Shown here: positions 44,032 to 55,405 of the stretch, one piece after another
How the letters are laid out: the number at the start of each line of letters is the position of its first letter
Position numbering within the stretch: position 1 is the first letter of the stretch
DNA from: Natronomonas marina
GTDB taxonomy: Archaea > Halobacteriota > Halobacteria > Halobacteriales > Haloarculaceae
Direction of reading: 5' to 3'
DNA length: 64,000 nt
NCBI RefSeq assembly: GCF_024298905.1
Contig: NZ_CP101154.1
Coordinates: 3,374,932 to 3,438,931, forward strand
Notes under the pieces: model-generated
Seen by the model: the letters and a program-made list of their open reading frames with translations, nothing else
The model's database searches: none
Told to the model about the DNA's origin: nothing
Position numbers and translations under genes: made by a program

Positions 44032-44331
44032 TCAGGCCTCGGTCGCCGACCTGACCGGTCCCTCGCTGTGGTCCGCGGCCCGGACGACGAACTCACGGAA
44101 GGGGAGCCGTTCGTCCCAGGTCCGGAGCCGTGCGCGGTAGGCGCTGGCGGTCTCGGCCGCCTCAAGGGCCGCCTCCCGGTCGCGGAACCGCAACGTCTCG
44201 GCCGGGAACGGTCGTCCGCCGGTCCGGGCGCAGACGAGGTAGTACCGGCCCGACGGGTCCGCGAGGGCCTCGAGGCGACGCCTGATGTCCGCGAGCGTGC
44301 GTCCGGCCGTCGTGTCGGGCCGATCACTCAT
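44032..44331 (-). CDS. Haloarchaeal protein of unknown function (DUF7552-like)
   Basis: A 99-residue soluble protein. TLADIRRRLEALADPSGRYY, LVCARTGGRPFPAETLRF and EAALEAAETASAYRARLR, then DERLPFREFVV. This resembles a haloarchaeal family I recall as DUF7552, associated with regulators, but without proof. The ATG at 44331 overlaps the upstream stop (ATGA), so it is coupled to the 56-residue gene before it. Both lie downstream of an iron-box-like palindrome (44618-44635), which suggests an iron-linked role. Confidence 0.75.
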   Translation of the reverse strand: MSDRPDTTAGRTLADIRRRLEALADPSGRYYLVCARTGGRPFPAETLRFRDREAALEAAETASAYRARLRTWDERLPFREFVVRAADHSEGPVRSATEA

Positions 44332-44498
44332 CGTCGGACGTCCACCGGTCGTTCGGCGGCGATAAACGGTGCTCCCTCGTCCGCCAGCGCGATGCCGCCA
44401 CAGTCGTCTCGGTAGACCGTCCACGCCGGGAGTTCCGGGATGCCGTGGTCGGCCGGGTCACCGAACCGATGGGCGAGGACCCACTCGCGGGCCCGCAT
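44328..44498 (-). CDS. 56-residue protein, first gene of a tiny iron-box operon
   Basis: A small frame: MRAREWVLAHRFGDPADHG, then PELPAWTVYRDDCGGIALAD, ending FIAAERPVDVRR. The composition is protein-like in this frame only, and the stop overlaps the next start. The tail pattern, a strand followed by GIALAD and RPVxVRR, recurs in small haloarchaeal proteins as I recall. No cysteine pair for metal binding. A leader of about 100 nt precedes the ATG at 44498. Function unknown. Confidence 0.68.
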   Translation of the reverse strand: MRAREWVLAHRFGDPADHGIPELPAWTVYRDDCGGIALADEGAPFIAAERPVDVRR

Positions 44499-44617
44499 CT
44501 ACGCCACCCCTGTCCCGTCGTTCCTCGCGGAGAGTCGACGACTGCGGGGCCGCGACCCGCGCTTCGGGTCGCCTCGCCGCGTCGGTGCACCACACGCCAC
44601 GGTCTCCGTCGCCATGG
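44499..44617 (-). other. Leader between iron box and the 44498 start; possible basic micro-ORF
   Basis: In the same frame as the next gene, a reading frame from ATG 44615 or GTG 44600 encodes 38 or 33 residues (ACGAPTRRGDPKRGSRPRSR and on), stopping at TAG 44501-44499 exactly before the ATG at 44498. The basic composition is unlike haloarchaeal proteins. I take it for untranslated leader, though a leaderless start at GTG 44600 is geometrically possible. The rest up to pcn (44636-44742) holds nothing else recognised. Confidence 0.35.
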
Positions 44618-44635
44618 TTTTAGGCTAGCCTAAAA
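44618..44635. promoter_or_regulatory. DtxR/Idr-type iron box
   Basis: TTTTAGGCTAGCCTAAAA is a perfect 18-bp palindrome. It follows the TTAGG...CCTAA plan of DtxR-family sites, known in haloarchaea for the Idr iron regulators. For leftward transcription the right half overlaps the TATA position, so binding would repress the 44498 operon. Its twin is at 55388-55405. Confidence 0.7.
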
Positions 44636-44742
44636 ATTGATAGCCTTTTCGGTTCCTGCGCCGAGCGATGGCGGAGTGGGAACTGAAAACGGGTGGACGG
44701 AAGCGGTCGTGCCGTCGGAGCAATCGAGGAAGAGGGGGGTGT

Positions 44743-45486
44743 TCAGTCGCTCTGGATGCGCGGCGCCAGCATGTAGGTGACGTGACCGTCGCCCTCGGCG
44801 AAGCCGAAGTGCATCTTGACGGGGAACTCCTCGCCGAGTTCCATCGTCACCTCGGCGTCCTTCGGGATGGCCTTGTTCATGTCCTTGAGGTAGTCCAGCG
44901 AGAACAGCGAGCGGGCCTCGCCGGCGGTGAGGTCGATGAGGTCCTCGCGGCCGAGTTCGAGGTGGACGTCGTCGGTGTCGCCCTCGGCGTCGACGTAGAA
45001 CTCCTCGTCGTCGGGGTCGACGCCCAGCGCGATGTGGTCGCTCACCATGTCGGCGGCCGTCACGGCGCGGGCGATGTCGCGCCCCTCGATGACGATCTCG
45101 GCCGACAGGTCGAGTTCCGGCAGGTCCGGCTCCTGGCGGATGGAGTCGGGGTCGATGAGCGCCAGCGTGTACTCCAGGCCGTCCAGCGAGATGTGGAGCT
45201 TCCGGGTTTCCTCGTCGAGTTCGAGGTGGACGAGCTGGTCGGAGTCGGCCATACCGACGATGTCCTCCAGACGGTCGAGGTTGACGCCGATGACGCCGCC
45301 GTCGGTCTCGTAGGACTCGAAGGCCTCGGCCGACAGCTCCAGGTCGACCATCCCCACGTTTGCCGGGTCGACCGCGCGGATCGTGAGGCCCTCCTCCTCG
45401 AGGCGTATCTTGCACTCGTCGACCAGCACGCTCACGGAGTCGAGCGCAGCCCCGAGCGTGTCCGCACTCACGATAGCGTTGAACAT
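44743..45486 (-). CDS. pcn: DNA polymerase sliding clamp (PCNA)
   Basis: A 247-residue clamp. [56 protein letters not shown] and the terminal [13 protein letters not shown] are diagnostic of archaeal/eukaryotic PCNA; the acidic surface is strong, as in halophiles. It encircles DNA as a homotrimer and binds PIP-box proteins. It is a single gene with its own promoter region; the neighbouring downstream element is the iron box on the other side of its 3' end. Confidence 0.96.
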
Positions 45487-53091: not shown

Positions 53092-54213
53092 TCAGACGTC
53101 GACGCCTGCCTCGCGCATCAGCTCGAGGGTCGGCTCGAGGTCCGACAGCTCCGTGAGGTCGACATCCGGAGGGTTCAGTTCGTCGATGGGCGGCAGCTCG
53201 CCGATGGGTTCGACCTCCGAGATGAGCGGGTACTCGAAGGTGGTCCGGGCGAAGTAGTCCTGGGCCTCCGCCGACAGCAGGTGCCGGACGAAGTTGGCGG
53301 CCATGTCATCGTCACTGGCGGTGTCGACGACGGCGGCGCCGGCGACGTTGAAGATGGTGCCCGCGTCGTTCTCGGTGAAGGTGGTCGACAGCGGCGCCCC
53401 CGACCGGGCGTCGAGGACGCGCTGGATGTAGTAGTGGTTGGTGAAGCCCGCCGAGAGGGTGCCGTCGGCGATGGCCTGACAGATCTGGAACTCGTCGGGG
53501 TACCGCTGGACGCCGGAGTCTACCATCCCCTCGAGCCACTGGCGGGTCGTCTCCTCGCCCTCCAGCAGGCGCATCGCGGTGACGAACGCCTGGAACGAGC
53601 CGTAGCCGGGCGCCCAGCCCATCTCGCCGTCGAAGCGGTCGGCGTCCGGGAACGCCATGACGTCGTCGGGGATGTCGCCTTCCGAGAACGCCTCCGTGTT
53701 GAACGGGATGGAACGGGCCCGTCCCGACGTCCCGGTCCAGCGGTTCTCGTCGTCGCGGAACTCCTCGCCGACGAGGCCCGCGACGTCGTCCGGCAGCGGC
53801 GTCGTCCGGCCGGCCTCCGCGAGGAGGCCCAGCGCCCCGGCATTGACCGAGTAGAACACGTCGGCCGGGCTGTTGTCGCCCTCGGTCTGGATCTGGCTGA
53901 CCATCTCGTTGGCCGACCCGTACTTGACGTCGAGCGTCAGGTCGGCGTACAGCGACTCGATGTAGCCGATGAGTTCGCCGACCAGCACCTCACCGCGGCC
54001 GGAGTAGACGGTGACGGTCCCCTCCAGTGGCGGCATCTCCTTCATCGAGGTGCCGCCGGGGGCGTCCCGGCCCTCGCGCCCGGAGCCGATCTGTCCGGGC
54101 GCGATGTCGTCGCCGTTGCCGTCCCCGTTGCCTCCCATGATGTTGCTACAGCCGGCGAGGCCGACGGCGCCGACCGAGGCCGTCGCCGCGAGGAACCGAC
54201 GACGGGAGCTCAA
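53092..54213 (-). CDS. Fe(III)-type ABC transporter substrate-binding lipoprotein
   Basis: A 373-residue protein starting at TTG 54213. SSRRRFLAATASVGAVGLAG and Cys form a twin-arginine lipobox. GTVTVYSGRGEVLVGELIGY, VKYGSANEMVSQIQTEGDNS, PADVFYSVNAGALGLLAEAG and FTNHYYIQRVLDARSG match the AfuA/FbpA family of ferric-ion-binding proteins. A perfect GGAGGTGA (54221-54228) stands 7 nt before TTG, which settles the start. The usual permease and ATPase genes do not follow; glycosyltransferase genes lie on both sides. Confidence 0.9.
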   Translation of the reverse strand: MSSRRRFLAATASVGAVGLAGCSNIMGGNGDGNGDDIAPGQIGSGREGRDAPGGTSMKEMPPLEGTVTVYSGRGEVLVGELIGYIESLYADLTLDVKYGSANEMVSQIQTEGDNSPADVFYSVNAGALGLLAEAGRTTPLPDDVAGLVGEEFRDDENRWTGTSGRARSIPFNTEAFSEGDIPDDVMAFPDADRFDGEMGWAPGYGSFQAFVTAMRLLEGEETTRQWLEGMVDSGVQRYPDEFQICQAIADGTLSAGFTNHYYIQRVLDARSGAPLSTTFTENDAGTIFNVAGAAVVDTASDDDMAANFVRHLLSAEAQDYFARTTFEYPLISEVEPIGELPPIDELNPPDVDLTELSDLEPTLELMREAGVDV

Positions 54214-55373
54214 TCCGCCGTCACCTCCGCTTCCGGGACGGCACGGTCGGCCGTCTCCAGTTCCTCGAGGCAGTCGAGCCACTCCAGCATCGTCTCGCCG
54301 ACCAGGTTGAGGAAGGCGCCGTTCTGGTAGGCCTCGAAGTCGCCCTCGGCGAGCTCCTCGCCCATCGCCTCGAAGACGCCGGCGTAGCTGTCGGCGTCGG
54401 CGCCGACGCCGTGGATCTCCTCCCAGACGTGCTCGTTCAACTCGAGGCCCGCGACCTCGTTGTGCAGGTCCGAGAACGTCGAGCGCGGCGCCTTGTTGTG
54501 CTCGCACAGCGGCGCACCGTTGTAGATGCGCTTGCCGAGCACGTCGCAGGCGCGCTTGAGGAACACGCCCGACCAGATATCGTCGAACCGGCCGACGTCC
54601 CACTCGTTGTCGTCCATCGGCAGCTGGTAGAACGCCGGGATTACCTCCCGCCGGAACGCGAGGTTCATCGAGCAGACGGTGAGGTAGTTGCCACGGGCGG
54701 CGACGAAGTCGCCCTCGAAGTCCGCCGCCGAGGTGCGGGTCTGGGCCTGGCCCTGCAGGTCGCCGTCCATCAGGATGCGGACCGCGTCGAGGTCGGGCAC
54801 GTTGGTCCACAGCCCCTGGGAGGCGACCACGTCGTCGACTGCGACGGGTTCGGTCTCGACGGTCTCGTCCATCGCGCTGTAGGGGTAGCCCCGCGGGTAG
54901 AGTCCGTGCTCGTCGGCGTTCTGGTACAGCACGTTCACCCACTGCTCGTCGGAGGCGACGGCCTCGATCTCGCCCTCGAAGGCGAGGTTCCGCAGGTGCC
55001 GCCCGAAGAAGTCGTACTCCTCGTGGGGCAGCGTGTCGTCGTCGATGAGGAAGCCGTACTCGTAGTCGCCGGCCCACAGGTACAGCAGGCCGAAACTCGT
55101 CTCGGCGTGGCTCGCCGCCGGGATGAGGTCGGCGTACTCGGAGAGACCGCGAGACTCGAACCAGGACTCCCGGCGCGGTCCGTCGAAGACCTCGCCGTCG
55201 ACGCCCAACTCGTCGAGCATCGCCTCCATCCCCTCGACATCGCAGAACTCCTCGGTCACCAAGAGGAACTGCAGTCGGTCGGTGTCGAACCCGTGAGCCC
55301 GCGCGTTCTCCACGTAGGCGCGGACGCACTCCGGTTCGCGGACCGTCGGCACGATAACACAGATGTCGGTCAT
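54210..55373 (-). CDS. GT75-like (reversibly glycosylated polypeptide) glycosyltransferase
   Basis: A 387-residue protein. MTDICVIVPTVREPECVRAY is the nucleotide-sugar-binding start; YEYGFLIDDDTLPHEEYDFF carries the DDD motif; GLWTNVPDLDAVRILMDGD and FKRAC/VLGKRIYNGAPLCEHN follow. The family is often named alpha-1,4-glucan-protein synthase. Substrate: a UDP- or GDP-sugar. The ATG at 55373 is preferred over TTG 55385 because the TATA-like CTTTTAGG inside the iron box gives a leaderless start there. It is the first gene of the three-gene operon. Confidence 0.88.
   Translation of the reverse strand: MTDICVIVPTVREPECVRAYVENARAHGFDTDRLQFLLVTEEFCDVEGMEAMLDELGVDGEVFDGPRRESWFESRGLSEYADLIPAASHAETSFGLLYLWAGDYEYGFLIDDDTLPHEEYDFFGRHLRNLAFEGEIEAVASDEQWVNVLYQNADEHGLYPRGYPYSAMDETVETEPVAVDDVVASQGLWTNVPDLDAVRILMDGDLQGQAQTRTSAADFEGDFVAARGNYLTVCSMNLAFRREVIPAFYQLPMDDNEWDVGRFDDIWSGVFLKRACDVLGKRIYNGAPLCEHNKAPRSTFSDLHNEVAGLELNEHVWEEIHGVGADADSYAGVFEAMGEELAEGDFEAYQNGAFLNLVGETMLEWLDCLEELETADRAVPEAEVTAD
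54221..54228 (-). promoter_or_regulatory. Full-length ribosome-binding site for the TTG start
   Basis: On the minus strand GGAGGTGA, fully complementary to the 16S rRNA end, lies 7 nt before TTG 54213. It sits in the last codons of the GT75-like gene and indicates strong internal initiation. Confidence 0.75.
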
Positions 55374-55387
55374 CTCGCTCGCCAATA

Positions 55388-55405
55388 TTTTAGGGAGACC
55401 TAAAA
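55388..55405. promoter_or_regulatory. DtxR/Idr-type iron box
   Basis: TTTTAGGGAGACCTAAAA: 7-bp perfect arms around GAGA, the same plan as the box at 44618. It overlaps the TATA position for the 55373 start, so binding of an iron-loaded repressor would block the operon containing the Fe(III)-binding protein. Confidence 0.8.

What the first reader, a model, noticed from the sequence alone, without database searches (positions are those of the whole stretch)
44618..44635. Perfect iron-box palindrome in front of a tiny uncharacterised operon
TTTTAGG-CTAG-CCTAAAA matches DtxR/Idr operator style and has a twin at an Fe(III)-transport operon in this window. The only genes it can serve are the 56- and 99-residue proteins at 44328-44498 and 44032-44331. 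These become candidate new members of the haloarchaeal iron response.
Basis: partly seen in the sequence, partly recalled or inferred. Interest (0 to 1): 0.72.

Follow-up and report, generated by a model that had tools for sequence, protein, structure and literature searches.

The report
Iron box driving a hollowed-out siderophore operon
A perfect iron-control switch in a salt-loving archaeon still sits at the start of a siderophore-uptake operon whose first gene has shrunk to a 38-codon stub, leaving two small, widespread, uncharacterised proteins as the apparent targets of the switch.

Summary
The palindrome is real and highly non-random. TTTTAGGN4CCTAAAA occurs perfectly 3 times in this 4-Mb haloarchaeal genome (about 0.0005 expected). 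The sites lie mostly at metal-uptake or ferritin-type genes. The two small proteins belong to the iron response: in other haloarchaea the same box precedes siderophore-binding lipoprotein genes, followed stop-to-start by the 56-aa gene, then in many genomes a DUF7552+DUF7551 gene, often with DtxR-type regulator and Dps genes. The 99-aa protein is a DUF7552 protein; the 56-aa family has no Pfam or NCBIfam entry.

A 38-codon ORF (44499-44615, minus) starts 2 nt after the box, at leaderless-promoter geometry, and its stop abuts the 56-aa ATG. It resembles the Tat-signal start of the missing lipoprotein and reproduces its stop/start junction, so it is most likely a deletion relic. Eleven of 72 sampled 56-aa genes have a box this close; all have such an ORF and 10 of 11 run into the 56-aa start. 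I infer that the stub survives because it delivers ribosomes to the coupled downstream genes. The DUF7551 half is absent from this genome.

Which DtxR protein binds, the iron response at this site, and the two proteins' biochemistry are untested.

The parts
44618..44635 (.). Iron box (DtxR/Idr-type operator) TTTTAGGCTAGCCTAAAA, at -20 to -3 of the leaderless ATG
44636..44652 (-). BRE/TATA promoter element CCGAAAAGG-CTATCAAT, TATA at -28 to -21 of the ATG at 44615
   Evidence: same geometry in 60 distinct box-ATG starts; -28/-27 are T in about 80%
44499..44615 (-). 38-codon relic of a Tat/lipoprotein siderophore-binding gene (MATETVACGAPTRRGDPKRG...GVA*); stop TAG abuts next ATG
44328..44498 (-). 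56-aa protein, family without a Pfam or NCBIfam entry (M-x-A-R-x-W ... RP-x-x-V-R-R)
   Evidence: dN/dS about 0.2-0.35 against relatives
44032..44331 (-). 99-aa DUF7552 protein without the usual DUF7551 half; ATGA overlap with the 56-aa gene
44743..45486 (-). pcnA (sliding clamp), upstream neighbour in the same direction, not part of the operon
55388..55405 (.). Twin iron box in front of an RGP-type gene (54210-55373, minus) and an SBP_bac_6-type solute-binding gene (53092-54213, minus)

Best explanation
The palindrome is the operator of a DtxR/Idr-type iron-responsive repressor, placed between the TATA element and the first codon of a leaderless promoter. It drives a remnant of a siderophore-uptake operon. 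The ancestral first gene, a Tat-exported siderophore-binding lipoprotein (FhuD type), was removed by internal deletion, leaving its promoter, start codon, the twin-arginine start of its signal peptide and its stop codon as a 38-codon stub. When iron is low the repressor leaves, transcription starts at the stub's ATG, ribosomes translate the stub, terminate at TAG|ATG and restart on the 56-aa gene, then pass through the ATGA overlap to the DUF7552 gene. The two small proteins are therefore made under iron limitation and most likely act as cytoplasmic accessories of siderophore-iron uptake or release. Shown by sequence: box, promoter geometry, stop/start junctions, gene family, operon context in relatives, recurrence of stubs. 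Inferred: which regulator binds, iron response at this site, re-initiation, role of the proteins.
For: Rarity and placement of the box. Genes next to boxes in this genome: a siderophore island with Peripla_BP_2 proteins, FecCD and ABC ATPase, DpsA, and ABC permease, ATPase and solute-binding genes of a transporter. In relatives: box, then lipoprotein, stop|ATG, 56-aa gene, oxidoreductase, DUF7552+DUF7551, DtxR-type regulator, Dps in varying subsets. Box in 24 of 30 DUF7552 loci (about 3 kb each) and in 31 of 42 named 56-aa loci (about 7 kb each), none for the backwards control. The stub resembles lipoprotein starts (real lipoproteins aside, only 2 of about 1,500 other ATG starts score higher). 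Ten of 11 short leaders end within 2 nt of the 56-aa ATG, about 2% expected each. Leaderless geometry in 60 starts. A congener keeps box and full-length DUF7552+DUF7551 at the same place after pcnA. Haloferax: fhu operons preceded by an iron-regulon signal, five FhuD proteins up 4-8 fold in iron starvation (PMC11349517). Coupling in Haloferax requires overlaps or very short gaps (PMC10666635).
Against: No expression or binding data for this organism. The stub is so short and decayed that its match to lipoprotein starts is modest on its own. Ancestry alone explains the abutting stop; selection for coupling is an inference, and one stub (G342) does not reach the 56-aa start. The proteins have no informative fold match, so their biochemical role is open. 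At least one box in this genome serves a glycosyltransferase with no evident link to iron.
Confidence: 0.82

Rival explanations
1. The 38-codon ORF is a chance ORF; the box simply controls a 56-aa gene with a 120-nt 5' untranslated leader.
For: The stub has no clear codon-position bias (GC 0.67/0.74/0.79), is arginine-rich rather than acidic, and stops are scarce in GC-rich DNA.
Against: Promoter geometry puts the transcript start at its ATG. ATG lies 2-3 nt after the box in all 11 short-leader loci and the ORF ends at the 56-aa ATG in 10 of 11. Several stubs carry recognisable lipoprotein starts or ends (G342 N-terminus; Halorubrum rubrum, Halorubrum sp. SD626R and G334 C-termini).
Confidence: 0.12
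2. The stub is a functional small protein or regulatory leader peptide in its own right, not only a coupler.
For: Open frame kept in 10 cases, one through frame changes (Halorubrum rubrum L144), and tandem-repeat growth in G017.
Against: Stub sequences and lengths (28-106 codons) are not conserved between lineages; only start, stop and position are.
Confidence: 0.1
3. The box is bound by a manganese-responsive (MntR/TroR-like) DtxR-family protein, so the operon answers to manganese rather than iron.
For: Both clear DtxR proteins of this genome score best to MntR models, though below their cut-offs.
Against: The box genes are siderophore-binding proteins, FecCD and Dps, and the corresponding Haloferax operons are reported under an iron regulon and respond to iron starvation (PMC11349517).
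Confidence: 0.1

Closest known systems
DtxR/IdeR iron regulon (Idr/SirR/TroR in haloarchaea; the 'ferR' regulon signal of Leyn and Rodionov 2015 cited in PMC11349517)
   Same: TTAGG...CCTAA palindrome, placed in promoters of siderophore-uptake and Dps genes, DtxR-type regulators in the genome and often in the operon
   Different: Targets here are two small uncharacterised genes behind a relic; the motif of the cited work could not be read and compared directly
Haloarchaeal fhuD-type siderophore operons (e.g. in Halorubrum, Natrinema, Natronomonas)
   Same: Same promoter layout, same stop|ATG junction into the 56-aa gene, same DUF7552 partner
   Different: Lipoprotein body and DUF7551 half are missing; module sits behind pcnA, away from the transporter genes
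Pfam DUF7552 (PF24422) / DUF7551 (PF24420)
   Same: The 99-aa protein is a clear DUF7552 member (97 bits against a cut-off of 27)
   Different: No DUF7551 half and none elsewhere in this genome
Translational coupling by termination-reinitiation (PMC6728339, PMC10666635)
   Same: Abutting or ATGA-overlapping stop/start pairs in one transcript
   Different: Here the upstream partner is a decayed stub whose only evident use would be coupling; not tested experimentally

Membership tests
DtxR/Idr-type iron operator | Palindromic TTAGG-N4-CCTAA core, far above chance | tested here: met
DtxR/Idr-type iron operator | Located in promoters of iron-uptake or iron-storage genes | tested here: met
   Peripla_BP_2, FecCD and DpsA genes, and DtxR-type regulator genes in relatives, next to boxes
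DtxR/Idr-type iron operator | DtxR-family regulator encoded in the same genome | tested here: met
   Two DtxR proteins above cut-off with both N-terminal and dimerisation domains
DtxR/Idr-type iron operator | Metal-dependent binding of the regulator to this site | not testable with these tools
   needs ChIP or EMSA
DUF7552 (PF24422) | Match over the curated cut-off | tested here: met
   97.1 bits against 27, residues 12-85
DUF7552+DUF7551 two-domain proteins | C-terminal DUF7551 domain | tested here: not met
   No DUF7551 in P0002 nor in the genome; a congener has it at the same locus
56-aa family of siderophore operons | Invariant M1, A3, R4, W6, A9, P15, P24, R56 and position behind a siderophore-binding gene | tested here: met
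   alignments A1 and A2; junctions; in the window only the relic of that gene remains
FhuD-type siderophore-binding lipoprotein (relic) | Tat twin-arginine start, and stop codon abutting the 56-aa ATG | tested here: met
FhuD-type siderophore-binding lipoprotein (relic) | Lipobox and Peripla_BP_2 domain | tested here: not met
   absent from the 38-codon ORF, so it is a relic, not a member

The most novel reading that the evidence does not exclude
Haloarchaea repeatedly hollow out the first gene of leaderless operons and keep the stub under selection as a dedicated ribosome-delivery ORF, so that an iron-controlled leaderless start can feed coupled downstream genes; the 56-aa protein is the indispensable part of these siderophore operons.
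Probability: 0.4. Interest if true: 0.72.

Novelty: new variant of a known kind. Interest (0 to 1): 0.58.

Why it matters
It gives two widespread haloarchaeal orphan families (one without any Pfam or NCBIfam model, one a DUF) a concrete place: iron-controlled siderophore uptake. The repeated stubs are a natural experiment on how leaderless archaeal operons keep downstream genes translated after the first gene is lost, which can be tested in Haloferax or Halorubrum with simple reporters.

Tried and rejected
Pfam and NCBIfam for the 56-aa and 38-aa proteins: nothing. PDB sequence search for the 56-aa family: nothing. AlphaFold models of the 56-aa protein (pLDDT 82, pTM 0.46) and DUF7552 (pLDDT 82, pTM 0.70) gave no informative fold match. 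Literature search for DUF7552: no paper. The archaeal DtxR regulon paper (Leyn and Rodionov 2015) is not held, so its motif was not compared. The idea that the gene at the twin box is a transporter was dropped: it is RGP-type, with the solute-binding gene second. The backwards control for the looser core at one mismatch exceeds the real count (36 against 14), so one-mismatch core sites are not evidence on their own; sites such as those at dpsA and the ABC ATPase rest on their gene context.

Full report
Observation. The palindrome TTTTAGGCTAGCCTAAAA is at 44618-44635 and its twin at 55388-55405. In the whole genome (G000, 3.99 Mb) there are 3 perfect sites, 3 with one mismatch and 3 with two; the same pattern read backwards gives none. 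Composition alone predicts 0.0005 perfect sites and 0.03 with up to one mismatch.

What the boxes serve in this genome. Contexts were read from stretches around each site and checked with Pfam and NCBIfam. 3545118 plus 3545154: two boxes 36 bp apart before a Peripla_BP_2 siderophore-binding lipoprotein, with a second lipoprotein, an FAD-type oxidoreductase, FecCD and an ABC ATPase behind. 3537782: box 2 nt before a secreted protein, followed by another Peripla_BP_2 gene. 55388 in the window: RGP-type gene, then an SBP_bac_6-type solute-binding gene. 1152537: ABC permease. 2064708 (two mismatches): DpsA. 2069887 (one mismatch in the core): ABC ATPase. 3344038: a glycosyltransferase. The permease, ATPase and solute-binding genes look like parts of one ferric-type transporter scattered in the genome, but no NCBIfam model exceeds its cut-off, so 'Fe(III)' is inference.

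The two small proteins. The 99-aa protein is DUF7552 (97 bits against a cut-off of 27), found in 257 of 391 haloarchaeal genomes. The 56-aa protein has no Pfam or NCBIfam family but occurs in 95 of 391 genomes, with invariant M1, A3, R4, W6, A9, P15, P24 and R56. Pairwise dN/dS is about 0.2-0.35 for the 56-aa gene and 0.27 for DUF7552 against a congener (ratios of the dN and dS values), so both look like genes under purifying selection.

Operon context elsewhere. In relatives the order is box(es), siderophore-binding lipoprotein gene(s), 56-aa gene, and then in varying subsets an FAD oxidoreductase, a DUF7552+DUF7551 protein, DUF7260, a DtxR-type regulator (PF01325, PF02742) and Dps. Some genomes have only lipoprotein plus 56-aa gene (L091). 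Boxes with up to 2 mismatches lie in 24 of 30 DUF7552 loci (about 3 kb each) and 31 of 42 named 56-aa loci (about 7 kb each), against none for the backwards control. This ties both proteins to box-controlled siderophore uptake independently of the window. In a congener (G288) the same place after pcnA holds a box 3 nt before a full-length DUF7552+DUF7551 gene; the other congeners examined have no box or DUF7552 gene within 1.5 kb of pcnA.

The relic. Between box and 56-aa gene lies a 38-codon ORF, MATETVACGAPTRRGDPKRGSRPRSRRLSARNDGTGVA, starting 2 nt after the box and ending TAG directly before the 56-aa ATG. In most intact operons examined the lipoprotein's stop codon abuts the 56-aa ATG in the same way, and its start commonly lies 2-4 nt after the box with a ..PTRR.. 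Tat motif, for example MPTTETVQRAPTRRETIRYGG. Against a profile of 22 such starts, own genome excluded, the stub scores 8.7 bits; leaving aside two real lipoproteins of this genome, only two of about 1,500 other ATG starts score higher. I read it as the lipoprotein gene with its body deleted.

Recurrence. Of 72 distinct 56-aa genes, 11 have a box 50-400 nt upstream. All 11 have an ATG 2-3 nt after the box, and in 10 the ORF (28-106 codons) ends exactly at the 56-aa ATG or at most 2 nt before it; shuffles give about 2% for each. Some stubs keep recognisable lipoprotein parts: PTRRDYV in G342, EERLSDRRRVRDAVAGDL in H. rubrum, RPIDRERVADAVRGDR in SD626R, DERLSDRRR in G334. In H. rubrum the signal-peptide part is out of frame while the end is back in the native frame, as if an open path to the 56-aa start was kept. 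The genomes are not all independent (G017/G061 and G217/G334 are congeners), and the shuffle control does not separate inheritance of the junction from selection for it.

Promoter and mechanism. Sixty distinct box-ATG starts share one geometry: TATA-like element at -28 to -22, box at -20 to -3, ATG at once; the window fits (CCGAAAAGG-CTATCAAT-box-CC-ATG). This is the layout of leaderless haloarchaeal promoters (established knowledge), with the operator between TATA and start, where a bound repressor would block transcription. The genome has two clear DtxR proteins, one 42% identical to the operon-borne regulator of a relative. In Haloferax the fhu operons are preceded by an iron-regulon signal and five FhuD proteins rise 4-8 fold in iron starvation (PMC11349517). 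In archaea, coupling by termination-reinitiation needs overlaps or very short gaps, and in E. coli the last 15 nt of the upstream gene sufficed (PMC10666635). The chain here is TAG|ATG then ATGA, so one leaderless start could serve all three ORFs. This step is inferred.

Function of the proteins. The 56-aa model is a helical start plus a three-strand meander, the DUF7552 model two long helices and three strands; neither has an informative fold match. Neither shows a Tat or lipoprotein start, so cytoplasmic accessory roles in siderophore-iron release or transporter assembly are the best guess, at low confidence.

Verdict. The regulon is a known kind; the two families as members, and the recurrent stub, appear undescribed in the papers I could search.

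Noticed in passing
window 53092-55405: The twin box precedes an RGP-type (reversibly glycosylated polypeptide, PF03214) gene followed by an SBP_bac_6-type solute-binding gene; a glycosyltransferase-like gene in an iron-box operon is unexpected.
   Followed up: partly
L012:7260-10155 (G000:C1 about 3343260-3346155): Boxes in front of a dolichyl-phosphate-type glycosyltransferase and near a GMC-type oxidoreductase with a small Tat-type partner, genes with no evident link to iron.
   Followed up: no
L013:7452-7627: A 46-aa protein (..VFTEPDNSDGWIATDYTVDIER) behind a one-mismatch box core; similar 55-aa proteins sit in the siderophore operons of relatives (L076, L081). Another small orphan of the iron regulon.
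   Followed up: no
L149, L150, L151: In three congeners an iron box precedes a 454-460 aa Tat-type secreted protein (no Pfam match for the one tested) followed by a short stand-alone DUF7552 gene.
   Followed up: partly
L046 / L084 (G017): The stub in this genome has grown by tandem repeats (AVRTERA repeated several times) to 94 codons while staying open.
   Followed up: no
G000:C2:116713-117450 (L186): A second, 65% identical sliding-clamp (PCNA) gene on the smaller contig of this genome.
   Followed up: no
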